Part shown: piece by piece, positions 57 through 11,377 of the stretch | How positions within the stretch are numbered: the stretch's first letter is position 1 | Layout: every line of letters starts with the position of its first letter | Assembly (NCBI RefSeq): GCF_030813695.1 | Contig: NZ_JAUSVA010000002.1 | Location: forward strand, 2,480,001 to 2,544,000 | Length of the DNA: 64,000 bases | Source: Kitasatospora herbaricolor | GTDB lineage: Bacteria > Actinomycetota > Actinomycetes > Streptomycetales > Streptomycetaceae | Direction: 5' to 3' | The notes under the pieces: model-generated | Databases searched by the model: none | What the model was told of the DNA's origin: nothing | The model's input: only the letters and a program-made list of their open reading frames with translations | Position numbers and translations under genes: made by a program

Positions 57-761
57 ATGCAGACCACCCCTTCGAAGGCGACGCTCACCGCGTACGAGCC
101 GCCGCCCAAGCCCGGGGCCCCGCCGGGGGGCCGGCTCGGTCCGGAGATCAGGTTCCAGTTCAATCCGAACACGCTGTCGCTGAGCAAGGGCGCGCAGTGG
201 CGGCAGAACCTGATCCGGGGCGGCGAGGAGACCGGCGTGCCGGAGTTCATGGGCGCCCAGCCGCGGCAGTTGACCGTGGAGCTGTTCCTGGACGCGACCG
301 CCACCCGGGACGACAGCGTGGCCAAGTCGGTGGAGACGCTGCTGGGTTGGTGCGCCCCGACGCCGGCGAGCATCGCCGCGAAGGCGCCGAGCGCGCCCCG
401 GGTGATGTTCGCCTGGGGGTCCTTCGAGAGCGTGAAGTTCTTCGGGTACCTGGGCCAGGTGAGCGCGACGTACTCGCTGTTCGATCCGAGCGGGCGGCCG
501 CTGCGGGCCACCTGCCAGGTGCAGGTGACGGAGTCCGGGGAGCCGACGCCGGGGCAGAACCCGACCTCGGGGGCGCTGAACGCGCGGCGGGTGCACCGCC
601 TGGTGGCGGGCGACAGCCTGGAGCTGCTGGCGTACCAGGAGTACGGCGACGCGACGGCCTGGCGACGGATCGCGGAGGCCAACGGCATCGACGACCCGAT
701 GCGGCTGCGGCCGGGGGCGGAGCTGCTGGTGCCGGCGGCGGCCGAGTCGAGGGCGGGGTAG
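57..761 (+). CDS. CIS tube-associated LysM protein (Afp7/Cis7-like)
   Basis: Structural protein of a contractile injection system. In related systems the LysM protein joins the end of the inner tube to the spike. Residues about 25-165 look like the CIS tube/gp54-type domain (FQFNPNTLSLSKGAQW near the start). The C-terminal ~50 residues are a LysM-like module (HRLVAGDSLELLAYQEYGD, then WRRIAEANGI and LRPGAELLVP). An AGGAG at 43-47 supports the ATG at 57, but the frame stays open to the window edge, so an upstream start is possible. It is followed 6 nt later by the spike gene. The sheath, tube and ATPase genes expected upstream would lie left of the window. Confidence 0.85.
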   Translation: MQTTPSKATLTAYEPPPKPGAPPGGRLGPEIRFQFNPNTLSLSKGAQWRQNLIRGGEETGVPEFMGAQPRQLTVELFLDATATRDDSVAKSVETLLGWCAPTPASIAAKAPSAPRVMFAWGSFESVKFFGYLGQVSATYSLFDPSGRPLRATCQVQVTESGEPTPGQNPTSGALNARRVHRLVAGDSLELLAYQEYGDATAWRRIAEANGIDDPMRLRPGAELLVPAAAESRAG

Positions 762-767
762 CGGGCG

Positions 768-2543
768 ATGTCGCTGGGTGCGAACACCAACGCGTTCGTG
801 ATCGGCTGCCCCGGGCCGCTGCCCGCGCCGTGGCCGGGGATGCCGATGGAGGTGCAGGTCCAGGAGAGCGGGGGGCTGCCGGCGGTCGCCGTGGTGCGGT
901 TCCTCGATCCGGGCCGTGACCTGCTGGCGCAGACCGGCATCACGGTCGGCGGGAAGTTCACCGTCCAGGTGAAGCCCGGCGACGAGACCGCGCTGCTGCC
1001 GCTGTTCACCGGCGAGGTGGTCTCCCTGGAGGCCGAGTTCGACGGGGCGGGCAGCTTCACCACGGTACGGGCGCTGGACGTCTCGCACCGGCTGCAGCGG
1101 GGCCGGCGGATCGCCGGCTACCGCAACAGCACCGCGTCCGAGGTGGCCGTGCAGCTGGCCTCGGCGGCGGGCGTGCCGCTCGGCACGGTGGACGCGACCC
1201 GGACGGTGTACGAGTACCTGACCCAGCCGAACGTCTCGGACTGGGAGTTCCTGCGCACGCTGGCCGTGGAGAACGGCCGTGAACTGGTGGTCGCGGACGG
1301 CCTGCTGCACTTCCGCGACCCGGTGCCGGCCACCTCGGCGCCGGGGCTCGCCACCCGGCCGGAGCAGAGCCCGTTCGTGCTGGAGCTCGGCCGGAACGTG
1401 CTGGCCGTCCGGGCGGCGGTGTCCTCGGTGGGGCAGGTGTCCACGGTGGAGGTGCGCGGCTGGGACGTCGCCCGCAAGGCGGCGGTGGTCGCGGACACGC
1501 CCGTCACCCCGAGCACGGAGCTGCAGCTGGGCCTCACCCCGCAGCAGGCGGTGGCGGCCTTCCCGCCCGCCCGGCTGCTGGTGGCGGACGTCCCGTACCG
1601 GACGGCGGCGGAGGCGACGGCGGTGTCCGCAGCGCTGGCGGCCGACACCGCGGCGGCGCTCGGCGAGCTGGAGATCACCGTGCGCGGCAACCCGCACCTG
1701 CGGGTGGGTGTCCCCGTGACGCTGAGCCGGGCGGGCGCGCCCTTCGACGGCAAGTACACCATCACGGCGGCGGTGCACGCGGACCTGCGCGGCCTGGGCT
1801 ACGAGACCCGGCTGACGGTCAGCGGCCGCCAGGACCGCAGCTGGTACGGGCTCGCCTCGGGCGCCTCGGCGGCGGCCCGCCCGGCCCGGATCCCCTCGGT
1901 GGCCACGGGCGTGGTGGTGGACATCATGAAGCCCGGTGAGACGCCGCTCTCCGGCTACCGGGGCCAGGAGAAGCAGGCCTGGGTGAAGCTGAAGTTCCCC
2001 TGGCTGTCGGACAGTTCGGGCGGCGGCGAGGCGTACGTCAGCGACTGGGCCCGGACGGTTCAGCTGGGCGGGGTGCGCGGCGGCGGGCTCATCTGCCCGG
2101 AGATCGGCGACGAGGTGCTGGTCGCCTTCGAACAGGGGCTGCTGGACCGCCCGTACGTGATCGGCGGCCTCTACAACGGCGCCGACCTGCCCTCGCCCGA
2201 CGCCACCCCGCTGACCGACGGCCTCGGGCGGGTCAACCGGCGTTCGCTGGCCTCCCGCAGCGGGGACCGCCTGGAGCTGCTGGACGGCGCGTACGCCGAG
2301 CAGGGCGTGCGGCTGCGCAGCGGCGACGACCGGCTGACCGTCCACCTGGACCGGCAGCGGACCGAGATCACCGTGCACAGCGACGGGACGGTGACGGTGA
2401 CGGCCGGCAAGCAGGTCACCGTGCGGGGTGAGGGGATCACCCTGGACGCCGGCGGCGGGGAGCTGAAGCTCACCGGGCGCAGCGTCTCGGTGCGGGGCAC
2501 CACCGACGTCACGGTCAAGGCCGCGACGATCCATCTGAACTGA
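768..2543 (+). CDS. VgrG-like spike protein of the CIS
   Basis: 591-residue spike homologue (Afp8-like) that should sit at the tip of the tube and pierce the target. The N-terminal two thirds resemble the gpD/gp27-type late-control fold. Residues about 375-470 carry a gp5/Phage_base_V OB-type domain (IMKPGETPLSGYRG, then EIGDEVLVAFEQGLLDRPYV). The C-terminus ends in short beta-strand repeats (TVTAGKQVTVRGEGITL, TTDVTVKAATIHLN) like the beta-helix needle. No extra enzymatic C-terminal domain is visible, so it is not an evolved VgrG with a fused toxin. ATG lies 6 nt after the LysM gene stop, which suggests co-transcription. Confidence 0.9.
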   Translation: MSLGANTNAFVIGCPGPLPAPWPGMPMEVQVQESGGLPAVAVVRFLDPGRDLLAQTGITVGGKFTVQVKPGDETALLPLFTGEVVSLEAEFDGAGSFTTVRALDVSHRLQRGRRIAGYRNSTASEVAVQLASAAGVPLGTVDATRTVYEYLTQPNVSDWEFLRTLAVENGRELVVADGLLHFRDPVPATSAPGLATRPEQSPFVLELGRNVLAVRAAVSSVGQVSTVEVRGWDVARKAAVVADTPVTPSTELQLGLTPQQAVAAFPPARLLVADVPYRTAAEATAVSAALAADTAAALGELEITVRGNPHLRVGVPVTLSRAGAPFDGKYTITAAVHADLRGLGYETRLTVSGRQDRSWYGLASGASAAARPARIPSVATGVVVDIMKPGETPLSGYRGQEKQAWVKLKFPWLSDSSGGGEAYVSDWARTVQLGGVRGGGLICPEIGDEVLVAFEQGLLDRPYVIGGLYNGADLPSPDATPLTDGLGRVNRRSLASRSGDRLELLDGAYAEQGVRLRSGDDRLTVHLDRQRTEITVHSDGTVTVTAGKQVTVRGEGITLDAGGGELKLTGRSVSVRGTTDVTVKAATIHLN

Positions 2544-2591
2544 AGGCCGGCCGTCGTGACGGCCGGCCAGAGCGAGAGAACCGAGGACCGG

Positions 2592-2975
2592 ATGCCGCAG
2601 GCGGCGAGGCTGGGAGACACCACCAGCCACACGTACACCCCCGTGGTGCCCGGGGTTCCCACCGGCACCGTGGGCCCGCCCGGCGGGCAGGCGCTGCCCG
2701 CGCTGCCGGTGGATCCCGGGCCGTTGCTGGGCGTCACCTCGGTACGGATCGGCGGGCAGCCGGCGGCCGTGGTGGGCACGGTGCACACCTGCACCCTGCA
2801 CATGCCGATGACGCTGACCCTGACCAATCTGGCGCTGCCGGCCGTGCCCCCGCCGCCGCCGGCCGCCGGCCGGGTGCTGATCGGCGGGTTCCCGGCGGCC
2901 CGCAAGGGTGACCGGCTGAGCTGCCAGGCGTCGGTAAGCAGCGGCGCGCCGACCGTGTTCGTCGGGGGGCGGTGA
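2592..2975 (+). CDS. PAAR-domain tip protein of the CIS
   Basis: 127-residue PAAR protein that would cap the spike and may carry cargo. It begins MPQAARLGDTTSH, the usual PAAR opening. It repeats the pattern with VRIGGQPAAVVG and VLIGGFPAARKGDRLSC; the histidines and cysteines in these segments are the likely metal ligands. An open frame extends upstream to a GTG at 2556, but the family normally begins at MPxAARxGD, so the ATG at 2592 is preferred. A hydrophobic, proline-rich stretch (LPAVPPPPPAAG) separates the two halves. The next gene starts after one base, so translation is probably coupled. No toxin domain is fused to it. Confidence 0.85.
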   Translation: MPQAARLGDTTSHTYTPVVPGVPTGTVGPPGGQALPALPVDPGPLLGVTSVRIGGQPAAVVGTVHTCTLHMPMTLTLTNLALPAVPPPPPAAGRVLIGGFPAARKGDRLSCQASVSSGAPTVFVGGR

Positions 2976-2976
2976 G

Positions 2977-3420
2977 ATGCCCGAGCAGTTCGTCGGGGCG
3001 GGCTGGGCCTTCCCGCTGCGGACCGACGCCACCGGCTCGATCGCGCTGGTCGACCGGGACCGGGAGATCAGCGAGTCGATCCGGCTGGTGCTGGGGACGG
3101 CGCCGGGAGAGCGGCCGATGCGGCCGGAGTTCGGCTGCGGCATCCACGGGTACGTCTTCGCGACGGCGGACGCCGACACCGCGGGGCGGATCTCGTACGA
3201 GGTGCGGCGGGCGCTGGACCGCTGGGAGCCGCGGATCCTGGTGGACCGGGTGGAGGTGGCGCTGGACTCCTCGGACAGCGGCACCCTCTACATCGAGATC
3301 CGCTACACCGTGCGGGGCACCAACAACCCGCGCAGCCTGGTCTTCCCGTTCTACGTGATTCCCGCGCACGAGCCGTCGCCCGCCGGCGGCACGCAGTCCG
3401 TTCAGGAGAGTTCCCGCTGA
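2977..3420 (+). CDS. gp25-family baseplate wedge protein
   Basis: 147-residue GPW/gp25 family protein (Afp9-like), a baseplate component that also templates sheath assembly in related machines. The family core is clear: SIRLVLGTAPGERPMRPEFG, then GRISYEVRRALDRWEPRI and the beta strands VEVALDSS and IEIRYTVRGTNNPRSLVFPF. In phage gp25 the EPR-type region contacts the sheath; here the equivalent is GERPMRPEFG. The ATG is one base after the PAAR stop and is preceded by a G-rich Shine-Dalgarno-like run. Its stop codon overlaps the next start by one base (TGATG). Confidence 0.9.
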   Translation: MPEQFVGAGWAFPLRTDATGSIALVDRDREISESIRLVLGTAPGERPMRPEFGCGIHGYVFATADADTAGRISYEVRRALDRWEPRILVDRVEVALDSSDSGTLYIEIRYTVRGTNNPRSLVFPFYVIPAHEPSPAGGTQSVQESSR

Positions 3421-5369
3421 TGGTCCTGCCCTCCCCCAATCTCGACGACCGCCGGTTCCAGCAGCTGGTGGACGAGGCGAAACGGTTCATCCAGCAGCGT
3501 TGCCCGGAGTGGTCGGACCACAACGTCTCCGACCCGGGGGTGACGCTGGTCGAGGCCTTCGCCCACATGACGGATCAGCTGCTGTACCGGCTCAACCGGG
3601 TGCCGGAGAAGAGCTACCTGGCCTTCCTGGACCTGGTCGGGGTGGAGTTGTTCCCGGCGGCGGCGGCCCGCGCCGAGGTGACCTTCTGGCTGTCCGCGCC
3701 GCAGCCGGTCCAGCTGCGACTGCGGGCCGGCACCGAGGTGTCCACCCTCAGCAGCGGCCACGAGGACCGGATCGTCTTCGCCACCACCGACGAACTCGCC
3801 GTCAACCCGTGCGAGTTCGGTTTCCTGCTGACCCGGCCGGCGGACGGCCGCCCGGTCGACCGGACGGAGGAGCTGCAGGCCGGTCAGGATGTCGGCTGCT
3901 TCGCCGACGTCCCGCAGGCGGGTGACCAGTTGCTGGTCGGGCTGACCGCGGCGGTCCCGCACTGCGCGGTGCTGCTGCGCCTGGACAGCCGGGTCGAGGG
4001 CGTCGGTGTGGACCCGCGCCAGCCGCCGCTGGTCTGGGAGGCGTACGACGGGGACGGCTGGCTGCCGTGCGAGGTGGACAGCGACGGGACCGGCGGCCTG
4101 AACCGCCCCGGCGAGGTGGTGCTGCACGTACCGGGCGGGCACGCGCTGGCCACCGTGGCCGGCCAGCGGGCCGGCTGGCTGCGCTGCCGGACGGTGCCGG
4201 CCAGGCCCGGGCAGCCGTTCTACGCGGCCTCGCCGACCGTGCGGGCGGTCACCGCCGCCACCGTCGGCGGCACCGTGCGGGCGGTCAACGCGCAGAGCGT
4301 GGACGGGGAGTTCATCGGCGACTCGGAAGGCACGCCGGGCCAGCGCTTCGCCGTGGCGCACCCCCCGATGCTGGGCGGCGACGGCCCGCTGACCGTCGAG
4401 GTGTCCTCGGAGGACGGCTGGCGCGACTGGCGCGAGGTGGAGACCTTCGCCGACCGGGGGCCGCTGGACCGCTGCTTCACCGTCGACCGCACCGGCGGCG
4501 AGGTGGCGTTGGGCCCGGCCGTGCGGGAGCCCGACGGCTCGCTGCGCCAGTACGGCGCGGTGCCGCCCAAGGGGGCCCGGATCCGGGTGGCGCGCTACCG
4601 CACCGGCGGCGGCCGGCGGGGCAACGTGGCGCGCGGGGCGCTGTCGGTGGTCCGCAGTTCGGTGCCGTACGTGGCCCGGGTGGAGAACCGGGAGGCGGCG
4701 TCCGGCGGGGTGGACGGCGAGACGGTGCAGGGCGCGATGGCGCGCGGGCCGCTCCACCTGCGCACCCAGGACCGCGCGGTGACCGCGGCCGACTACGAAC
4801 TGCTGGCCCGGCGGGCGGCCCCCTCGGCGGCCCGGATCCTGGCGCTGCCGGCGGGCCGCGGCGCGGAGGAGGGCGGGGTGCGGGTGCTGGTGGTGCCGGC
4901 GGCCGTCGCGGACAGCGGCGACCGGCTGCGCTTCGAGCAGATGGTGCCGCCGGACGACATGCTGGCGGGCATCGCCCGGTACCTGGACGAACGCCGCCCG
5001 ATCGGCGCCCGGCTGGTGGTCGAGCCGCCGTTCTACCAGGGCGTCACGGTGGTGGCCCGGCTGATGGCCCGGCGCGGCACCGCGACCGGCCAGGTCCGCG
5101 AGCGGGCCCTGGACGCGCTCCACCGGTACCTCAACCCGCTGACCGGCGGCGCCGACGGCACGGGCTGGCCGTTCGGCCGCCCGGTCCAGGCGGGCGAGGC
5201 GTACGCGGTGCTCCAGCGCCTGCCCGGGGTCGAACTCGTCGACGACGTGAAGCTGTTCCCGGCGAACCCGTTGACGGGTGAGCGGGGCGCTCCGGGCGAC
5301 CGGGTCGACCTGGACCGCAACGCGCTGGTGTTCTCGTACCAGCACCAGGTCCGGGTGGAGGAGCTGTGA
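3420..5369 (+). CDS. Baseplate J/gp47-like assembly protein (Cis11-like)
   Basis: 649-residue putative baseplate assembly protein of the type found in CIS and P2-like tails (Afp11/gpJ-related). It forms the wedge linking hub and periphery of the baseplate. Visible features are the N-terminal LDDRRFQQLVDEAKRFIQQR and SDPGVTLVEAFAHMTDQLLY, which are characteristic of this family. The C-terminal region has ARGPLHLRTQDRAVTAADYE and YLDERRPIGARLVVEPPFYQ. Length is normal for actinobacterial members. It starts on the last base of the gp25 stop and overlaps the next gene by 4 nt, so the six genes behave as one operon. Confidence 0.88.
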   Translation: MVLPSPNLDDRRFQQLVDEAKRFIQQRCPEWSDHNVSDPGVTLVEAFAHMTDQLLYRLNRVPEKSYLAFLDLVGVELFPAAAARAEVTFWLSAPQPVQLRLRAGTEVSTLSSGHEDRIVFATTDELAVNPCEFGFLLTRPADGRPVDRTEELQAGQDVGCFADVPQAGDQLLVGLTAAVPHCAVLLRLDSRVEGVGVDPRQPPLVWEAYDGDGWLPCEVDSDGTGGLNRPGEVVLHVPGGHALATVAGQRAGWLRCRTVPARPGQPFYAASPTVRAVTAATVGGTVRAVNAQSVDGEFIGDSEGTPGQRFAVAHPPMLGGDGPLTVEVSSEDGWRDWREVETFADRGPLDRCFTVDRTGGEVALGPAVREPDGSLRQYGAVPPKGARIRVARYRTGGGRRGNVARGALSVVRSSVPYVARVENREAASGGVDGETVQGAMARGPLHLRTQDRAVTAADYELLARRAAPSAARILALPAGRGAEEGGVRVLVVPAAVADSGDRLRFEQMVPPDDMLAGIARYLDERRPIGARLVVEPPFYQGVTVVARLMARRGTATGQVRERALDALHRYLNPLTGGADGTGWPFGRPVQAGEAYAVLQRLPGVELVDDVKLFPANPLTGERGAPGDRVDLDRNALVFSYQHQVRVEEL

Positions 5370-5953
5370 GGGGGGGCACCGGGCCGCAGCGGCCCGGCGG
5401 GGACGGCGCGCGGTACGCCGTGGACGGCCTGGCCTCGCCCCGGCCGTTCGCCGCCCGGCTGCCCGAGGTGTACGCGGACGGGGAGTTCGGCGGGCGCTTC
5501 GTGGCGGCCTTCGACGACGTGCTGGCGCCGGTCTTCGCCGTGCTGGACTGCCTGGACGCCTACTGGGACCCGCGGTTGGCGCCGCCGGACTTCCTCGCCT
5601 GGCTGGCCGGCTGGGTCGCCGCCGACACCGCGGCCGGGCAGCCGGTCGAGCGGCTGCGGCCGGCGGTGGGCGAGGCCGTCCGGGTGCACCGGCTGCGCGG
5701 CACCGTGCCCGGCCTGACCGAACAACTGCGGCTGCTGGGCGTCGAGGCGGAGGTCACGGACAACGGCGGGGCGCACTGGTCGGCGACGCCGAACGGGCCG
5801 CTGCCGGGCTCGCCACGACAGTCGCTGCTGGTGCGGGTGGCCGTCCCGGTGGAGGAGGGTGATCCGGCGGCGCTGCTGCGCCGGGTCGAGGCGCTGGTGG
5901 AGGAGCACCGCCCGGCCCATGTGGGGTACCGGGTCGAGGCGGCGCAGCGGTAG
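5366..5953 (+). CDS. Phage tail protein I-like baseplate protein
   Basis: 195-residue protein of the phage-tail-protein (P2 gpI/TIGR02242-type) family, the usual partner of the gpJ-like wedge (Afp12-related position). The core LPEVYADGEFGGRFVAAFDD, then DPRLAPPDFLAWLAGWV and VHRLRGTVPGLTEQLRLLG, is diagnostic. It starts with a GTG inside the end of the preceding gene (GTGA overlap). This is the last gene of the CIS operon. No tail-fibre or receptor-binding gene follows, unlike Afp or PVC clusters. That agrees with the fibre-poor CIS known from Streptomyces, although a fibre gene could lie elsewhere. Confidence 0.85.
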   Translation: MRGGTGPQRPGGDGARYAVDGLASPRPFAARLPEVYADGEFGGRFVAAFDDVLAPVFAVLDCLDAYWDPRLAPPDFLAWLAGWVAADTAAGQPVERLRPAVGEAVRVHRLRGTVPGLTEQLRLLGVEAEVTDNGGAHWSATPNGPLPGSPRQSLLVRVAVPVEEGDPAALLRRVEALVEEHRPAHVGYRVEAAQR

Positions 5954-6117: not shown

Positions 6118-7776
6118 CTACGGCTTGGGCCAGCTGGTGGGCTGCACCACGCCGGGCGCCGCCTGGTCCTTCACCCAGCCGGAGATCAGCGCGAGCAGGG
6201 CGGTGCTGACGCCGCCCGCCGCCGCCGGCTGGTCGCCCTGGTACTTCGGGATCGCCGTCGCCAGCTTGGCGTCGTCGTACGAGGCGGTCGGCAGGGCCGC
6301 CTTGCTGCTCCAACTGGCGAGCAGCTTGCGGACGTTGTCCTCGTCCGCGGCCAGGTCGGCGGCGCTCAGCTCGCTCTGGTCGGCCCAGCGCAGCGCGGCC
6401 CTGGTGGCGAACACCTCCCAGGTGGTTCTGCCGGGGCCGACCTTGGAGCCGTCGCCGATGACGTCCCACATCCACAGCGCGGACATCGTCGCGCGGCCGA
6501 GGTTGCCGGACTTGTCGGTCGCCAGCAGGGTGCCCGGCGGGGTCCGCTTGTGGTCGTCGGTGGCCTTCTGGAAGCAGGCGATCTTCTCCACCGTCGGCGC
6601 GTCCATCTGGCCGGCCGTGACGGCCTTGGTCAGCCGGCAGTCGTTGGTGGCGTCCAGGCGCTTCAGCCGTTCCTGGGCGAAGAGGACGAAGAGGTTGGGC
6701 GTCCTGTCACCCGCCTTGATCGGCAGCGCGGCCCGGGCCGGACCCGCCGGGGCCGGCGGCACGGCCGGCGCGGGCGCGGGCGCGGCTGCGCCACCGCCGC
6801 CGGAGGCCGTACCGCCGCCGCCACCTCCACCACCGCCGGAGGAGCCGCCCGAGGAGCCGCCCGAGGAGCCGCCGGCGCTGCCGGCGGCCGGCTGGCCCGG
6901 GAGCGGGTCGGGCGCGCCGGGCACCACCGGGGCCGGCGCGGTGGGCTCGGGCGCGAGCGGCACCGGCTCGGGGGCGATCGGCGCGCCGGCCCCGGCCGGC
7001 TGGGCCGCGAGCGGGGCTGCGGGCTTCGCCCGGCTGGCCACCGAGGGGCTGGCGGTCAGCCAGAGCGCCAGGCAGCCGAGCAGCACCGCCGCCAGCACAC
7101 CGAGCAGGCCGGCCGCCCAGCGGGGCAGCACCGCCCGGTTGAGGTAACTGCCCTCCAGGGTCAGCGGCTCGGCGCCGGCCCGCTGGACGGCCAGGGTGAC
7201 GGGCAGGCTCTCGCTGCCGCCGCTCCAGCGGATCCGGCGCGGCTTCACCGACACCTTGCTGAACACGGCCCGGCCGGGGGCGATCTGCACCGAGGAGGGG
7301 TGCGGGTCGAAGTCGAGCTGGTCGCCGGTGTCCCGCCCGGCCAGCACGGCGGTGACCGGGGTGTTGCCCAGGTTGTCCACGGCCAGGTGCAGACGGCCCC
7401 GGAACCGGCCCCGGGTGACCGGCGGCACCAGTTCGGCGTGCAGTTCGGTGAACGGCGCGACCGATACGACGCCCTCGACCACCGTGGTGGCCGAGCGCTG
7501 CTCGGCGGGGGTGACCTGCAGGGCGTAGGGGTGCGGCCCGGCGGCGGCCTCCGGGGAGCGCGGCGGGGAGAAGACCAGCTCCACCGTGCCGGTGGTGCCC
7601 GGGTAGAGCGTCAGGGCGGCCGGTTCGATCCGCAGCCACAGCGCCGGGCCGCCCAGCGGCGCGACGCGGTACTCCTCGACGACGTCACCGGTGTTGCGCA
7701 CCCGCAGGGTGACGGTGGTGGTGCCGCCCGCGTCCACGGTGGCCGATGCGGGTTCTAGGGAAGTCCAGATGCTCAC
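6118..7776 (-). CDS. Ig-like / TM / peptidoglycan-binding-like membrane protein, CIS-linked
   Basis: 552 residues, GTG start, no signal peptide. Residues 1-105 and 106-205 look like two Ig-like (NEW3/CARDB-type) beta domains (TVDAGGTTTVTLRVRNTGDV; LHLAVDNLGNTPVTAVLAG). One TM helix lies at about 219-241. A Pro/Ala then Gly/Ser linker (245-350, with GGSS repeats) leads to a C-terminal domain at 351-552. Its APTVEKIACFQKATD and GNLGRATMSALW resemble the peptidoglycan-binding-1 pattern. Predicted topology is N-in/C-out. Its position beside the CIS operon suggests a role in anchoring or triggering the particle at membrane and wall. From memory, a Streptomyces membrane protein called CisA has such a role; whether this is its orthologue cannot be decided here. 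Confidence 0.6.
   Translation of the reverse strand: MSIWTSLEPASATVDAGGTTTVTLRVRNTGDVVEEYRVAPLGGPALWLRIEPAALTLYPGTTGTVELVFSPPRSPEAAAGPHPYALQVTPAEQRSATTVVEGVVSVAPFTELHAELVPPVTRGRFRGRLHLAVDNLGNTPVTAVLAGRDTGDQLDFDPHPSSVQIAPGRAVFSKVSVKPRRIRWSGGSESLPVTLAVQRAGAEPLTLEGSYLNRAVLPRWAAGLLGVLAAVLLGCLALWLTASPSVASRAKPAAPLAAQPAGAGAPIAPEPVPLAPEPTAPAPVVPGAPDPLPGQPAAGSAGGSSGGSSGGSSGGGGGGGGGTASGGGGAAAPAPAPAVPPAPAGPARAALPIKAGDRTPNLFVLFAQERLKRLDATNDCRLTKAVTAGQMDAPTVEKIACFQKATDDHKRTPPGTLLATDKSGNLGRATMSALWMWDVIGDGSKVGPGRTTWEVFATRAALRWADQSELSAADLAADEDNVRKLLASWSSKAALPTASYDDAKLATAIPKYQGDQPAAAGGVSTALLALISGWVKDQAAPGVVQPTSWPKP
6841..6874. repeat. 12-bp tandem repeat (2.8 copies) in linker
   Basis: GGAGCCGCCCGA repeated at 6841, 6853 and 6865 (last copy 10 nt). 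It encodes the GGSS linker repeats of the membrane protein and could vary in copy number by slippage. Confidence 0.8.
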
Positions 7777-7967
7777 CGCCGGACTCTAGGCGGCGTCCGG
7801 ACGCTCTGTCAGCGGCCGGCGGGGCCGTCCCGGGGGCAGCGGCGGCTGCCCTTGGGGGCAACCGGCGCGGGCGGCCGGACCCGGCCCCGCCGTCACCGCA
7901 CCGCGCCGGTCCGCCGCCCGCCCCGTCCGCGCAAGGTGGGCGCCGGGTGGCCCGGGGTGGACGCCGG

Positions 7968-10900
7968 CTACTCCTCGGCCGGTTCGGCCGACTCGAAGCC
8001 GGCCGCAAGTTCGGCCCGCCGCCGGATGCCCAACTTCCGGAAGCTGTTGGTCAGATGGGTCTCCACCGTGCGGACCGCCAGGTGCAGCAGGCCGGCGATC
8101 TCGGCGTTGGAGTGGCCGGCCGCGGCGAGCCGGCAGATCCGCTGCTCGCTGCTGGTCAGCGCGGGTGCGCCGGTGTGCCGCTGGGTGGTCAGCCGGGCCC
8201 CGGACTCCTGGAGCAGACCGACGGCGACCGTCCGCAGCCGGACCGCGCCGAGGCGTTCGGCCCGGGCCGCCGCCTCCCGCAGGGTCCGCCGGGCGGCGGC
8301 CCGCCGGCCGGCGGCTCCGAGCAGCTGCCCGAAGGTGATCAGGGCCGGGATCAGCTCGGTCGCCACCTCCGCCTCCGTCAGCAGCTCGACCGCCTCCTCC
8401 GCGGTCGCGAGGCCCTGCCGTCCGCCGGTGGCCGCGGCCAGCGCCCGCATCGCCCGGCCGACGGTGCGGGGCGTGCCCCAGACCCGGGCCAGCCGCAGTT
8501 CCTCGGCGGCCAGCTCCACGGCCTGTCCCGGCAGCCCCAGCAGCACCTGGCAGTCGGCGGCGGCCGACCGCCACGGGGTCACGATCGGGCTCTCCACCTG
8601 CCGCTCGCGCTGGCGGCGGCCGCACTCCAGCAGGTCCGCCAGCGCGGTCGCGGGCCGGCCGGAGGCGAGCTGCAGGAGCCCCCGGGCGTACAGGTACTCG
8701 TTCCACTCCCAGGAGCCGTGCGTCCCGCCCGCCTCGGCCGACCGGGACAGCTCGTGCGCCTCGTCCAGCCGGCCGGTCTCGGTCAGTGCGATCACGGCCT
8801 GGGCCACCAGGTGGGCGTTGCCCAGGGAGAGCAGGCCCTGGTGGCCCGGGTCGCCGTCCGGCCCGGCCGGGCCGCCCTCCCGGGCCGGCGCCCGGCACTC
8901 CTCCAGCAGCTGCCGGTACTCCCCCCGCATCACCCGGCTCTCCGCGCGGACGCTGAGCAGGCACTGGTACCCGGGGTGCAGCAGCGGGCCGCGGTAGGCG
9001 GCCATGCTCTGCTCCACCAGCCGGTCGGCCACCGGCAGCAGGTCGGCCCACTGGGCCAGGGTGGCGGCGGAGGCGGTGACGTACGACTGCGAGAACGGGT
9101 CCTGCGGGGCCTCGGTCAGCTCGCGCACCCGCTCGGCCACCTCGGCGGCGGACAGCAGGCCGCTGGTCGAGTCGAACTCGGTGAGCAGCGCCCGGGCGGC
9201 CGGTGCGATCCGCACGGGGGTCCGGGCCGCGATCCGGCGCAGTCCCTCGACCACCTGCAGCCAGCTGTGGCCGTCGTGCGAGGAGATCAGTGCGGCGGCG
9301 GCCTGGACGGCGCGGGCGAGGTCCTCCCGGTCGGCGAAGCGGTCGGCGAGTTCCTCCAGCACCTCCAGCGCGGCGGCGGTCTCGCCGCGGGCGGCGAGCG
9401 CCGCGCCGAGGGCGTTGGCCGCCGTGAAGACGCCCTCGTCGGACTGCTGCAGGTGCACGGCCTCGGCCAGGTGCCGGATGCCGGCCGCGTGCCCGGTGCC
9501 GCCCAGGGAGACCTCCAGGCAGCCGAGTTCGGTGAGGGTGGCGCCCCGGCGGCGGGCGGACAGCGGCTCGGCCAGGGCACGCCGCAGCAGCGCGGCGGCG
9601 AGCGACTGCCGGCCGTCCCGCAGGGCCGAGCGGGCCGCCCGGTGCAGGACGTCGGAGGCCCAGCGCTCGCCCGGGCCGGGGACGAGCAGCAGGTGCTGGG
9701 CGATCTGTTCGTCGGGGTCGCCGCGGCGGTGCAGCAGTGCGGCGGCGGCCCGGTGCACCTCCGCCCGGCGGGCGGCGTCCCAGCCGGCCAGGACGGCTTC
9801 GCGCAGCAGCGGGTGCGCGAAGCGGGGCCGACCGGCGTCCGGGGCCGGGCCGAGCAGTCCCTGAGCCGTCAGTCCGGCCAGCCAGCCGGCCAGCCGGAGC
9901 GGGTCGGCGCCGGTGAGTTCGGCGAGTTCGGCGGCGACCGCGGCGTGGCCGCCGGGTTCGACCGGGGCCGGGAGGAGCGGATCCGGATGCGGCGGCGCCG
10001 GGAGGGGCGGGGAAGGCGGGAGGTCCGGCCGGCCGGACCGGTCGGACGGTGCCGGGGCCGACGCCCGCTCGTCGCCCGCCCCCGGCTGCGGGCCGGCCGG
10101 CTCCAGGGGGCGGCTGTCCAGCTGGGCCAGGGTCCGGGCGGCGGTGGCGGCCTCGGGGCCGGAGCTGTTGAGCCAGTGGTCGACCGCGTCGACGAAGGCC
10201 GCCGGCGCGGGCCCCCGGCCGGCGGCGGTCTGCCGGGCCCGGTCCCGGGGCAGCGCGGCGAGGTCGGTGAGCAGGGCGTCCAGCAGCAGCGGGTTGCCGC
10301 CGGTCGCCTGTAGGCAGTCGTCCACCAGGGCGTCGTCCACCAGGGCGTCGTCCACCGGGGCGTCCACCGGCGTCCTGGCCGCGTCCGGCGCCCCGGCCGT
10401 GCGTGCGGAGGCGGTGCCGGGAAGGGTTCCGGCAACGACGCCGGGGGTGCTGCCGGGCGGTCGTCCGGCGCCGAGCCGGCGGGCGGCGAGTTCGGCGACC
10501 GCGGCACGGCCGAGCGGTGCCAGCAGGCAGGTCTGCGCCGGCGGCGAGGTCAGGGTGCGGCCGAAGCCGGCCGCCGGGGAGCCGAGTTCCGGCCGGCGCC
10601 GCTCGGTGACGACCAGCAGGACGGGCAGCCGGTCGATCCGGCGGCAGAGCTGGTGCAGCCACTGCCGCGAGGGGGCGTCGGCCAGCTGGATGTCGTCCAC
10701 CGCCAGCAGCAGCGGGCGGTGCGAGGCGTGCAGGAGCAGCAGGTCCCAGAGGTCGGCCTCCGGATCGCCCGGCGGCTGCGGCCCGGCCCGGCCGACCGCG
10801 CCCGGGGTCCGGGTGGCCAGGCCGCGGGAGCGGGCGCCCGGGTTGAACAGCTGCCGGGCGGCCGCGTACGCGCTGTGCGACTCCTCGGCCGAACAGCGGG

Positions 10901-11231
10901 CGCGCAGGACCCCGAGACCGGCCGCCGCCGGGCCGGCCGCGACGGCCGCGAGCAGGGCGGTGCGGCCGGTGCCGGCGGCGCCGGCGAGCAGCAGGACGCC
11001 TCCCGAGCCGTGCCGGGCCCGCTCCGCCATCTCCCCGGCGCGGGCGAGGGCCTCGGTGCGCTCGGCCAGCCACGGGCGCAGGGCGTCCGGCCGCGGCCCG
11101 GCGGACCGGGGCGCCGGGATCCGGTCCGCGCCGGGGAGGCCGGTCCGGGCGGCGCTCGTCCTCGTGGTGCTCCCACCCGTTCTCGTGGTCGTGGTCTTCG
11201 TACCCGTACTCGTGGTCGCGCTGCTGGTCAT
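7968..11231 (-). CDS. LAL-type giant LuxR transcriptional regulator
   Basis: 1087-residue ATP-binding LuxR-family (LAL) regulator. An AAA-type domain has Walker A GAAGTGRT (about residues 84-91) and Walker B LLLAVDDIQLAD (about 180). A long helical TPR-like middle follows, then a LuxR HTH at the C-terminus (LTSSEQRICRLAAAGHSNAE, then EIAGLLHLAVRTVETHLTNS). The ATG at 11231 is chosen because GAGAGGA lies 5 nt upstream; a GTG at 11261 would add 10 residues. The first ~25 residues are Thr/Ser-rich. I saw no TTA codon. It is upstream of, and on the same strand as, the CIS-linked membrane protein, and divergent from the next regulator. A large LuxR regulator beside the CIS cluster is also seen in other streptomycetes, so control of the CIS is a reasonable inference. 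Confidence 0.85.
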   Translation of the reverse strand: MTSSATTSTGTKTTTTRTGGSTTRTSAARTGLPGADRIPAPRSAGPRPDALRPWLAERTEALARAGEMAERARHGSGGVLLLAGAAGTGRTALLAAVAAGPAAAGLGVLRARCSAEESHSAYAAARQLFNPGARSRGLATRTPGAVGRAGPQPPGDPEADLWDLLLLHASHRPLLLAVDDIQLADAPSRQWLHQLCRRIDRLPVLLVVTERRRPELGSPAAGFGRTLTSPPAQTCLLAPLGRAAVAELAARRLGAGRPPGSTPGVVAGTLPGTASARTAGAPDAARTPVDAPVDDALVDDALVDDCLQATGGNPLLLDALLTDLAALPRDRARQTAAGRGPAPAAFVDAVDHWLNSSGPEAATAARTLAQLDSRPLEPAGPQPGAGDERASAPAPSDRSGRPDLPPSPPLPAPPHPDPLLPAPVEPGGHAAVAAELAELTGADPLRLAGWLAGLTAQGLLGPAPDAGRPRFAHPLLREAVLAGWDAARRAEVHRAAAALLHRRGDPDEQIAQHLLLVPGPGERWASDVLHRAARSALRDGRQSLAAALLRRALAEPLSARRRGATLTELGCLEVSLGGTGHAAGIRHLAEAVHLQQSDEGVFTAANALGAALAARGETAAALEVLEELADRFADREDLARAVQAAAALISSHDGHSWLQVVEGLRRIAARTPVRIAPAARALLTEFDSTSGLLSAAEVAERVRELTEAPQDPFSQSYVTASAATLAQWADLLPVADRLVEQSMAAYRGPLLHPGYQCLLSVRAESRVMRGEYRQLLEECRAPAREGGPAGPDGDPGHQGLLSLGNAHLVAQAVIALTETGRLDEAHELSRSAEAGGTHGSWEWNEYLYARGLLQLASGRPATALADLLECGRRQRERQVESPIVTPWRSAAADCQVLLGLPGQAVELAAEELRLARVWGTPRTVGRAMRALAAATGGRQGLATAEEAVELLTEAEVATELIPALITFGQLLGAAGRRAAARRTLREAAARAERLGAVRLRTVAVGLLQESGARLTTQRHTGAPALTSSEQRICRLAAAGHSNAEIAGLLHLAVRTVETHLTNSFRKLGIRRRAELAAGFESAEPAEE
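10317..10361. repeat. 15-bp tandem repeat, 3 copies
   Basis: Three 15-nt copies (one mismatch in the third) inside the LAL gene, coding a VDDAL-type repeat (DAPVDDALVDDALVDDC). It is in frame, so copy-number change would not break the gene. Confidence 0.8.
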
Positions 11232-11377
11232 CGTGGTCCTCTCGGCCGAGGACCCGGACACGCCGGGCCGAACGGGTTGCTACTCCGTTCACGCAGCCCG
11301 GGGCCCTGACGCTGCATCAGCGAGGCCCCGGAGGGCTGTGAGCTTCGTCGCACGGCTCCCGGGCCGGCCGCCCGATC

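What the first reader, a model, noticed from the sequence alone, without database searches (positions are those of the whole stretch)
6118..7776. Candidate membrane/wall dock for the CIS particle
The gene beside the CIS operon encodes predicted cytosolic Ig-like domains, one TM helix, a ~100-residue flexible linker and an outer domain resembling a peptidoglycan-binding fold. This N-in/C-out layout could link a cytosolic CIS to the membrane and wall. It may correspond to the reported CisA, but equivalence is not shown.
Basis: inference. Interest (0 to 1): 0.78.

Follow-up and report, generated by a model that had tools for sequence, protein, structure and literature searches.

The report
Sco4256-type membrane protein of a CIS
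A gene beside a bacterial molecular syringe encodes a membrane-spanning partner of that syringe with an outer cell-wall-binding-like end; it fits a known family of syringe-associated 'effectors' and is not the membrane adaptor CisA, which sits elsewhere in the same gene cluster.

Summary
The gene is real: 552 aa, minus strand, convergent with the last baseplate gene. It has two Ig-like domains (1-212), one TM helix (about 219-243), a Gly/Pro/Ala linker and a 202-residue C-domain related to PG_binding_1. The genome's own CisA-type protein (zinc ribbons, TM, 150-residue C-domain) lies about 10 kb before the window; in 6 genomes of the target's type the two genes have swapped ends of the cluster. 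The target fits the family of Sco4256-4258, published as CIS-associated effectors: conserved N-module plus TM, exchangeable C-domains (PG-binding-like, ricin, ChW, one unassigned type). The N-module is in 110 of 200 family genomes, 108 of them with a sheath gene, and in 2 of 72 without; in the phylum sample 19 of 22 have a sheath. Published glycoproteomics lists Sco4256 as a membrane O-glycoprotein, which favours N-in/C-out and sits awkwardly with pure tube cargo. Fired cargo or pre-installed envelope partner: open and testable. No direct alignment with Sco4256 or Sco4242 was possible; structure prediction failed.

The parts
6118..7776 (-). target gene, 552 aa, Sco4256-type bitopic protein
7141..7776 (-). 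N-module, residues 1-212: two Ig-like (ASH/HYDIN-type) domains; the part conserved across the family
   Evidence: residues 1-245 in 110 of 200 family genomes
7048..7122 (-). transmembrane helix, about residues 219-243
   Evidence: helix 219-242 in both low-confidence models
6727..7047 (-). flexible Gly/Pro/Ala-rich linker, residues 244-350
6121..6726 (-). C-domain, residues 351-552, PG_binding_1-related, two Cys (380, 401) invariant in 11 aligned proteins
7783..7788 (-). -10-like hexamer TAGAGT, 6 nt before the GTG start (leaderless transcript inferred)
   Evidence: TA...T invariant in 21 aligned sequences, target included
7807..7812 (-). -35-like CTGACA, 18 nt before the -10
   Evidence: CTGAC at this place in 13 of 21 by my reading
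57..761 (+). Cis7-type tube-associated protein (CIS_tube + LysM)
768..2543 (+). VgrG-related spike (Cis8)
2556..2975 (+). PAAR-like tip (by eye and position only)
   Evidence: no HMM run
2977..3420 (+). gp25-like baseplate gene by position (not tested)
3420..5369 (+). baseplate J / Cis11
5366..5953 (+). Tail_P2_I / Cis12; convergent with the target
7968..11261 (-). LuxR-family ATPase regulator next to the target

Best explanation
The gene encodes a Sco4256-type CIS-associated bitopic membrane protein whose C-domain is of a PG-binding-like type. Shown here: a conserved Ig-like N-module plus TM, joined by a low-complexity linker to exchangeable C-domains that mostly resemble envelope- or sugar-binding modules, nearly confined to genomes with a contractile sheath gene and usually encoded beside it. 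Inferred: it inserts N-in/C-out; the Ig module, the only part conserved across the family, is the part that meets the CIS in the cytosol; the linker lets the outer domain reach the wall; and it works with the CIS in host cell killing or envelope damage, alongside CisA, the separate adaptor that the same cluster encodes. The odds given are for family plus topology; the odds of the first two rivals concern its role and do not exclude it.
For: N-module in 110 and sheath in 128 of 200 family genomes, both in 108 (Fisher 9e-33, not corrected for relatedness); phylum 22 and 26 of 246, both in 19. 113 of 139 typed N-module matches lie within 40 kb of a sheath gene, 92 of them divergent upstream of it. 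C-domain in 16 of 200 genomes, in 15 of them directly after an N-module match; 9 of these genes besides the target, and one plasmid gene, were aligned as single ORFs. C-terminal swapping with ricin and ChW, as described for Sco4257/4258 (RICIN). Own CisA-type protein elsewhere in the cluster. Sco4256 listed as a membrane O-glycoprotein with 1 TM and no signal peptide (PMC6593405); its transcript depends on bldA together with CIS genes (PMC2000904). At least 2 Cys after the TM in 16 of 16 aligned proteins, none before it in 9 of 16.
Against: No direct alignment to Sco4256-4258 was possible; membership rests on architecture, C-terminal types, gene place and the 'hydrolytic protein' label on a relative. 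Positive-inside counts at the TM flanks are undecided (target +2/-2 before, +2/-0 after); 7 of 16 proteins do have Cys before the TM. Casu et al. report empty tube lumens in the triple mutant, which fits tube cargo. The glycoprotein list also holds three very likely intracellular proteins. 26 of 139 matches are not within 40 kb of a typed sheath match; G289, G352, G381, G131 and G018 have the N-module but no sheath match (G131 is in 1260 contigs, G018's match is weak, E 6.5e-5). In G148 the C-domain holds an in-frame TGA.
Confidence: 0.7

Rival explanations
1. It is a tube-loaded effector: the protein is packed in the CIS particle in the cytosol and reaches the membrane only when the particle fires; the TM and C-domain then damage the envelope.
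For: Sco4256-4258: lumen about 97% filled in wild type against about 85% empty in the triple mutant, toxic in E. coli, mutant phenocopies CIS loss (PMC10066040); Sco4256 found in all three particle purifications (PMC10020575); about one third of Sco4256 homologues are reported to have a C-domain similar to toxins and hemolytic lectins.
Against: Sco4256 listed as a membrane O-glycoprotein. Toxicity in E. coli is not specific, since CisA is toxic too, and CisA was also found in CIS preparations. S. lividans particles are reported to carry another, tape-measure-like cargo, Sle1 (PMC13277306 passages). No C-terminus of the 27 sampled matched a Pfam enzyme family at the thresholds used, though CDtoxinA (a lectin-type subunit, recalled) matched three of the ricin ones and six C-termini matched nothing.
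Confidence: 0.4
2. It is a passive dock or trans-envelope tether that holds the CIS to membrane and wall, parallel to CisA.
For: Layout, wall-binding-like C-domain, exchangeable envelope- or sugar-binding-like C-domains, sheath linkage; glycosylated Sco4256.
Against: The cluster has its own CisA-type protein; contraction in S. coelicolor hyphae already depends on CisA; no interaction data; particles are reported free-floating in the cytoplasm.
Confidence: 0.25
3. It is the CisA orthologue of this cluster.
For: It lies just after cis12, where cisA lies in S. coelicolor, though on the opposite strand; single TM.
Against: No Cys before the TM, C-domain of another type, no similarity to the CisA-type protein of the same genome; that protein matches the S. 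clavuligerus gene directly after cis12 (45% over 293 aa).
Confidence: 0.02
4. An unrelated wall protein that merely sits beside the CIS.
For: Separate strand and own promoter-like sequence; copies away from any sheath.
Against: Genome-level co-occurrence with the sheath in family and phylum.
Confidence: 0.03

Closest known systems
Sco4256/Sco4257/Sco4258 of S. coelicolor (CIS-associated effectors)
   Same: Conserved N-terminal part reported as pilus-chaperone-like (an Ig-type fold, recalled), single TM, variable C-terminus, CIS cluster
   Different: C-domain here is PG-binding-like rather than ricin or toxin/lectin-like; the gene lies convergent after cis12, whereas most relatives found here lie divergent upstream of the sheath
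CisA (Sco4242)
   Same: CIS-linked bitopic membrane protein (CisA: N-in/C-out by reporter assay in E. coli); gene next to cis12
   Different: CisA has a Cys-rich zinc-type domain, a largely unstructured N-terminus and a 150-residue C-domain; the target has none of these, and the genome has a separate CisA-type gene
PG_binding_1 (PF01471)
   Same: 9 of 11 C-domains, target included, match at E up to 1
   Different: Target itself below Pfam's cut-off; the domain is longer (202 aa) and in 15 of 16 genomes follows the N-module

Membership tests
Sco4256-type CIS effector | conserved N-terminal module followed by a single TM | tested here: met
Sco4256-type CIS effector | N-module with chaperone/Ig-like fold | tested here: inconclusive
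   weak Pfam Ig hits for the target, stronger in relatives; models too poor
Sco4256-type CIS effector | variable C-terminus, RICIN in some members | tested here: met
   of 27 sampled: 11 PG-like, 7 ricin, 3 ChW, 6 unassigned (sample not random)
Sco4256-type CIS effector | linked to CIS loci, rare elsewhere | tested here: met
Sco4256-type CIS effector | direct sequence similarity to Sco4256 | not tested
   no named S. coelicolor sequence came up in the collections used
Sco4256-type CIS effector | needed for a filled tube lumen / CIS-dependent death | not testable with these tools
   -
CisA | Cys-rich zinc-type region before the TM | tested here: not met
   no Cys before the TM in the target
CisA | about 150-residue CisA C-domain after the TM | tested here: not met
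   no similarity to the genome's CisA-type protein; C-domain of another type
CisA | gene directly downstream of the baseplate genes | tested here: met
   5366-5953 (+) then 6118-7776, but on the opposite strand
PG_binding_1 | score above Pfam gathering threshold | tested here: not met
   target 15.4 against 23 bits; one relative 26.5
PG_binding_1 | binds peptidoglycan | not testable with these tools
   -

The most novel reading that the evidence does not exclude
The Sco4256-type proteins are not fired cargo but pre-installed, glycosylated trans-envelope receptors of intracellular CIS. The Ig module catches the particle inside, and a plug-in outer domain (PG-, ricin- or ChW-type) reads or grips the wall, so that each lineage sets where or when its CIS fires by swapping that domain. 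The target is a PG-binding-like version whose gene has traded places with the cisA-type gene.
Probability: 0.3. Interest if true: 0.75.

Novelty: new variant of a known kind. Interest (0 to 1): 0.45.

Why it matters
How a cytosolic phage-tail-like machine in a Gram-positive cell meets its own membrane and kills is unsettled. The family to which this gene belongs is as widespread as the CisA type (matches at E up to 0.001 in 110 and 108 of 200 family genomes). Its published reading as tube cargo sits awkwardly with an independent glycoproteomics listing that implies an outer part of Sco4256, and a topology experiment with and without the sheath would decide. The exchangeable, binding-type outer domains are the observation to explain.

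Tried and rejected
Rejected: CisA identity. Phage origin of the N-module found no support: no match in phage records at E up to 0.01, no relative in two viral-contig scans. Tried without gain: AlphaFold of the whole protein without an alignment (mean pLDDT 38.8; a poor use of one of two jobs) and of residues 1-245 with one relative (48.2), so no fold search was run; PDB sequence searches with the whole protein (119 matches up to E 10; the 60 shown are mostly to the Gly/Ala/Pro linker) and with the N- and C-profiles (one match each, E 0.54 and 0.46, not credible); NCBIfam (nothing above cut-off for the target or the 11 aligned proteins); positive-inside counts (undecided). Several frames scanned (for example 7786-11292 and 3402-5345, both minus) are not the coding frame and gave nothing. 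Literature was searched. Of the ten papers opened I saw: outline, passages and sections 7 and 9 of PMC12237407; passages and section 11 of PMC10020575; passages and section 7 part 1 of PMC6593405; passages only of PMC10066040, PMC13277306, PMC11126660, PMC12923769, PMC12998442, PMC2000904 and PMC12402492. What I saw describes no PG-binding-type member of the family; one occurrence of 'peptidoglycan-binding' in PMC11126660 was not read.

Full report
Observation. Window 6118-7776 (-) is a real gene of 552 aa starting with GTG. Its codon-position G+C (0.73, 0.61, 0.95) is that of a coding frame, and three same-genus genomes carry orthologues (N-module 95, 95, 84%; C-domain 96, 95, 78%). It runs against the CIS operon: cis7, VgrG, a PAAR-like gene (by eye), a gp25-position gene (untested), baseplate J and Tail_P2_I lie on the plus strand. 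The sheath, two tube proteins and an AAA ATPase lie upstream of the window.

Anatomy. Residues 1-212 are read as two Ig-like domains. The evidence for the fold is weak for the target (Pfam E 0.013 at best) and better for relatives (best E 7.4e-8; a distant one passes a cut-off). The only strongly hydrophobic segment is at about 219-243 and no signal-peptide-like stretch precedes it. Residues 246-350 are Ala/Gly/Pro-rich. Residues 351-552 form a domain with two cysteines invariant in 11 aligned proteins; 9 of these 11 C-domains, target included, match PG_binding_1 at E up to 1, the target itself with 15.4 against a cut-off of 23 bits. AlphaFold did not help.

Not CisA. Section 11 of PMC10020575 describes Sco4242/CisA as a Cys-rich, possibly zinc-binding region of about 50 residues, then a TM, then about 150 conserved residues. 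The abstract and sections 7 and 9 of PMC12237407 give a bitopic protein with a cytosolic, largely unstructured N-terminus. That layout is found in another gene of this genome, L002:6293-7567 = C2:2468293-2469567 (start codon assumed), about 10 kb before the window. It has two zinc ribbons, a TM and a C-domain very weakly like F5/8 type C (E 0.13). It is 45% identical over 293 aa to the S. clavuligerus gene that directly follows cis12. The target and this protein show no similarity (best E 1.6). The CisA type is in 108 of 200 family genomes at E up to 0.001 (a few matches weak), 105 of them with the N-module. In six genomes (G000, G093, G191, G129, G193, G165) the CisA-type gene lies 4-12 kb upstream of the sheath and the N-module gene 12-15 kb downstream; in nine other genomes picked for comparison it is the reverse.

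What it is. [quoted passage not shown] it reports homologues in 47 of 94 CIS-bearing Streptomyces strains. PMC10020575 (section 11) reports relatives in 90% of 105 Streptomyces type IId CIS. The target's relatives show the same plan. Of 27 proteins sampled (target included), 11 have the PG-binding-like C-domain, 7 ricin, 3 ChW (one weak, E 0.003) and 6 an unassigned domain. The sample is not random: it was picked by similarity to the target's N- and C-parts. On plasmids 25 records match the N-module; of the 20 listed, 13 matches are annotated 'hydrolase' and one 'hydrolytic protein', the rest carry no annotation. Of four plasmid loci opened one has no annotation, two lie inside or beside CIS clusters, and one shows no CIS gene within 14 kb (incomplete gene table). 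The Streptacidiphilus copy L005 showed no CIS domain in the nine ORFs scanned there. A direct comparison with Sco4256 was not possible.

Linkage to CIS. N-module in 110 and sheath in 128 of 200 family genomes, both in 108, neither in 70 (Fisher 9e-33, not corrected for relatedness). The 20 sheath-only genomes all have sheath matches of E 8e-21 or worse, perhaps other sheath types; some genomes with both also have weak ones. In the phylum sample, 22 and 26 of 246, both in 19, 15 of these outside the family; three N-module genomes there have no sheath match. Of 139 typed matches, 113 lie within 40 kb of a sheath gene and 92 are divergent upstream of it (11 short or weak rows left out). Of the 26 others, 9 are further copies in genomes that also have a linked one and 17 lie on contigs without a typed sheath match.

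Topology and role. The lack of a signal peptide, at least two cysteines after the TM in 16 of 16 aligned proteins against none before it in 9 of 16, and the binding-type C-domains favour N-in/C-out; the flank charges are undecided. PMC6593405 (section 7 part 1 and passages) lists SCO4256 among 37 new glycoproteins found through glycopeptides from the membrane fraction, with 1 TM and no signal peptide. Because Pmt glycosylation is thought to act outside the membrane, this supports an outer part; the same list contains three very likely intracellular proteins. Against a pre-installed membrane protein stands the empty tube lumen of the triple mutant. S. lividans particles are reported to carry a different cargo, Sle1 (passages). 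I hold the family and the topology as likely and leave cargo against pre-installed receptor open, with cargo or effector somewhat ahead.

Regulation. Upstream of the conserved start, the 21 aligned sequences (target included) keep a TANNNT hexamer 6-8 nt before the start codon, and 13 of 21 by my reading keep CTGAC 17-18 nt further up. This suggests a leaderless transcript from its own promoter (inference). SCO4256 transcription depends on bldA together with CIS genes (PMC2000904 passages).

Verdict. The description is right, the CisA equivalence is wrong, and the gene is a PG-binding-like variant of a known CIS-associated family whose mode of action is not settled by the published data.

Noticed in passing
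window 7765-7836: Promoter-like TAGAGT/CTGACA directly before the GTG start; the TANNNT hexamer is kept in 21 aligned family members at nearly fixed spacing: probable leaderless mRNA
   Followed up: partly
L002:13905-17402: Large 1165-aa low-complexity frame with recurrent VQR motifs between the two tube genes, upstream of the baseplate genes, about where tape-measure-like CIS effectors (Tme) are reported; coding frame not verified
   Followed up: no
L002:3710-5356: Solute-binding plus VWA protein upstream of the CisA-type gene
   Followed up: no
window 7968-11261: Large LuxR-family ATPase regulator beside the target; a LuxR regulator gene, SCO4263, controls CIS genes in S. coelicolor
   Followed up: no
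L055, L057, L059, L061, L063, L009 C-termini: Unassigned C-terminal domain with a shared pattern (VP..GITDIV..., TIKFG, ETFRNQDYHW in most), no Pfam match to it, seen in the distant branch of the family
   Followed up: partly
L005:10737-11516: Ricin-type copy in Streptacidiphilus sp. 4-A2, read in several frames (draft frameshifts or decay), about 6 Mb from that genome's sheath match (taken as G074 by equal contig length)
   Followed up: partly
L009:15702-16355: GPP34 (GOLPH3-like) gene directly after a family member beside a CIS cluster
   Followed up: no
tally (records not listed): Four Deinococcus plasmid records match the N-module, far outside the Actinomycetota; not opened
   Followed up: no
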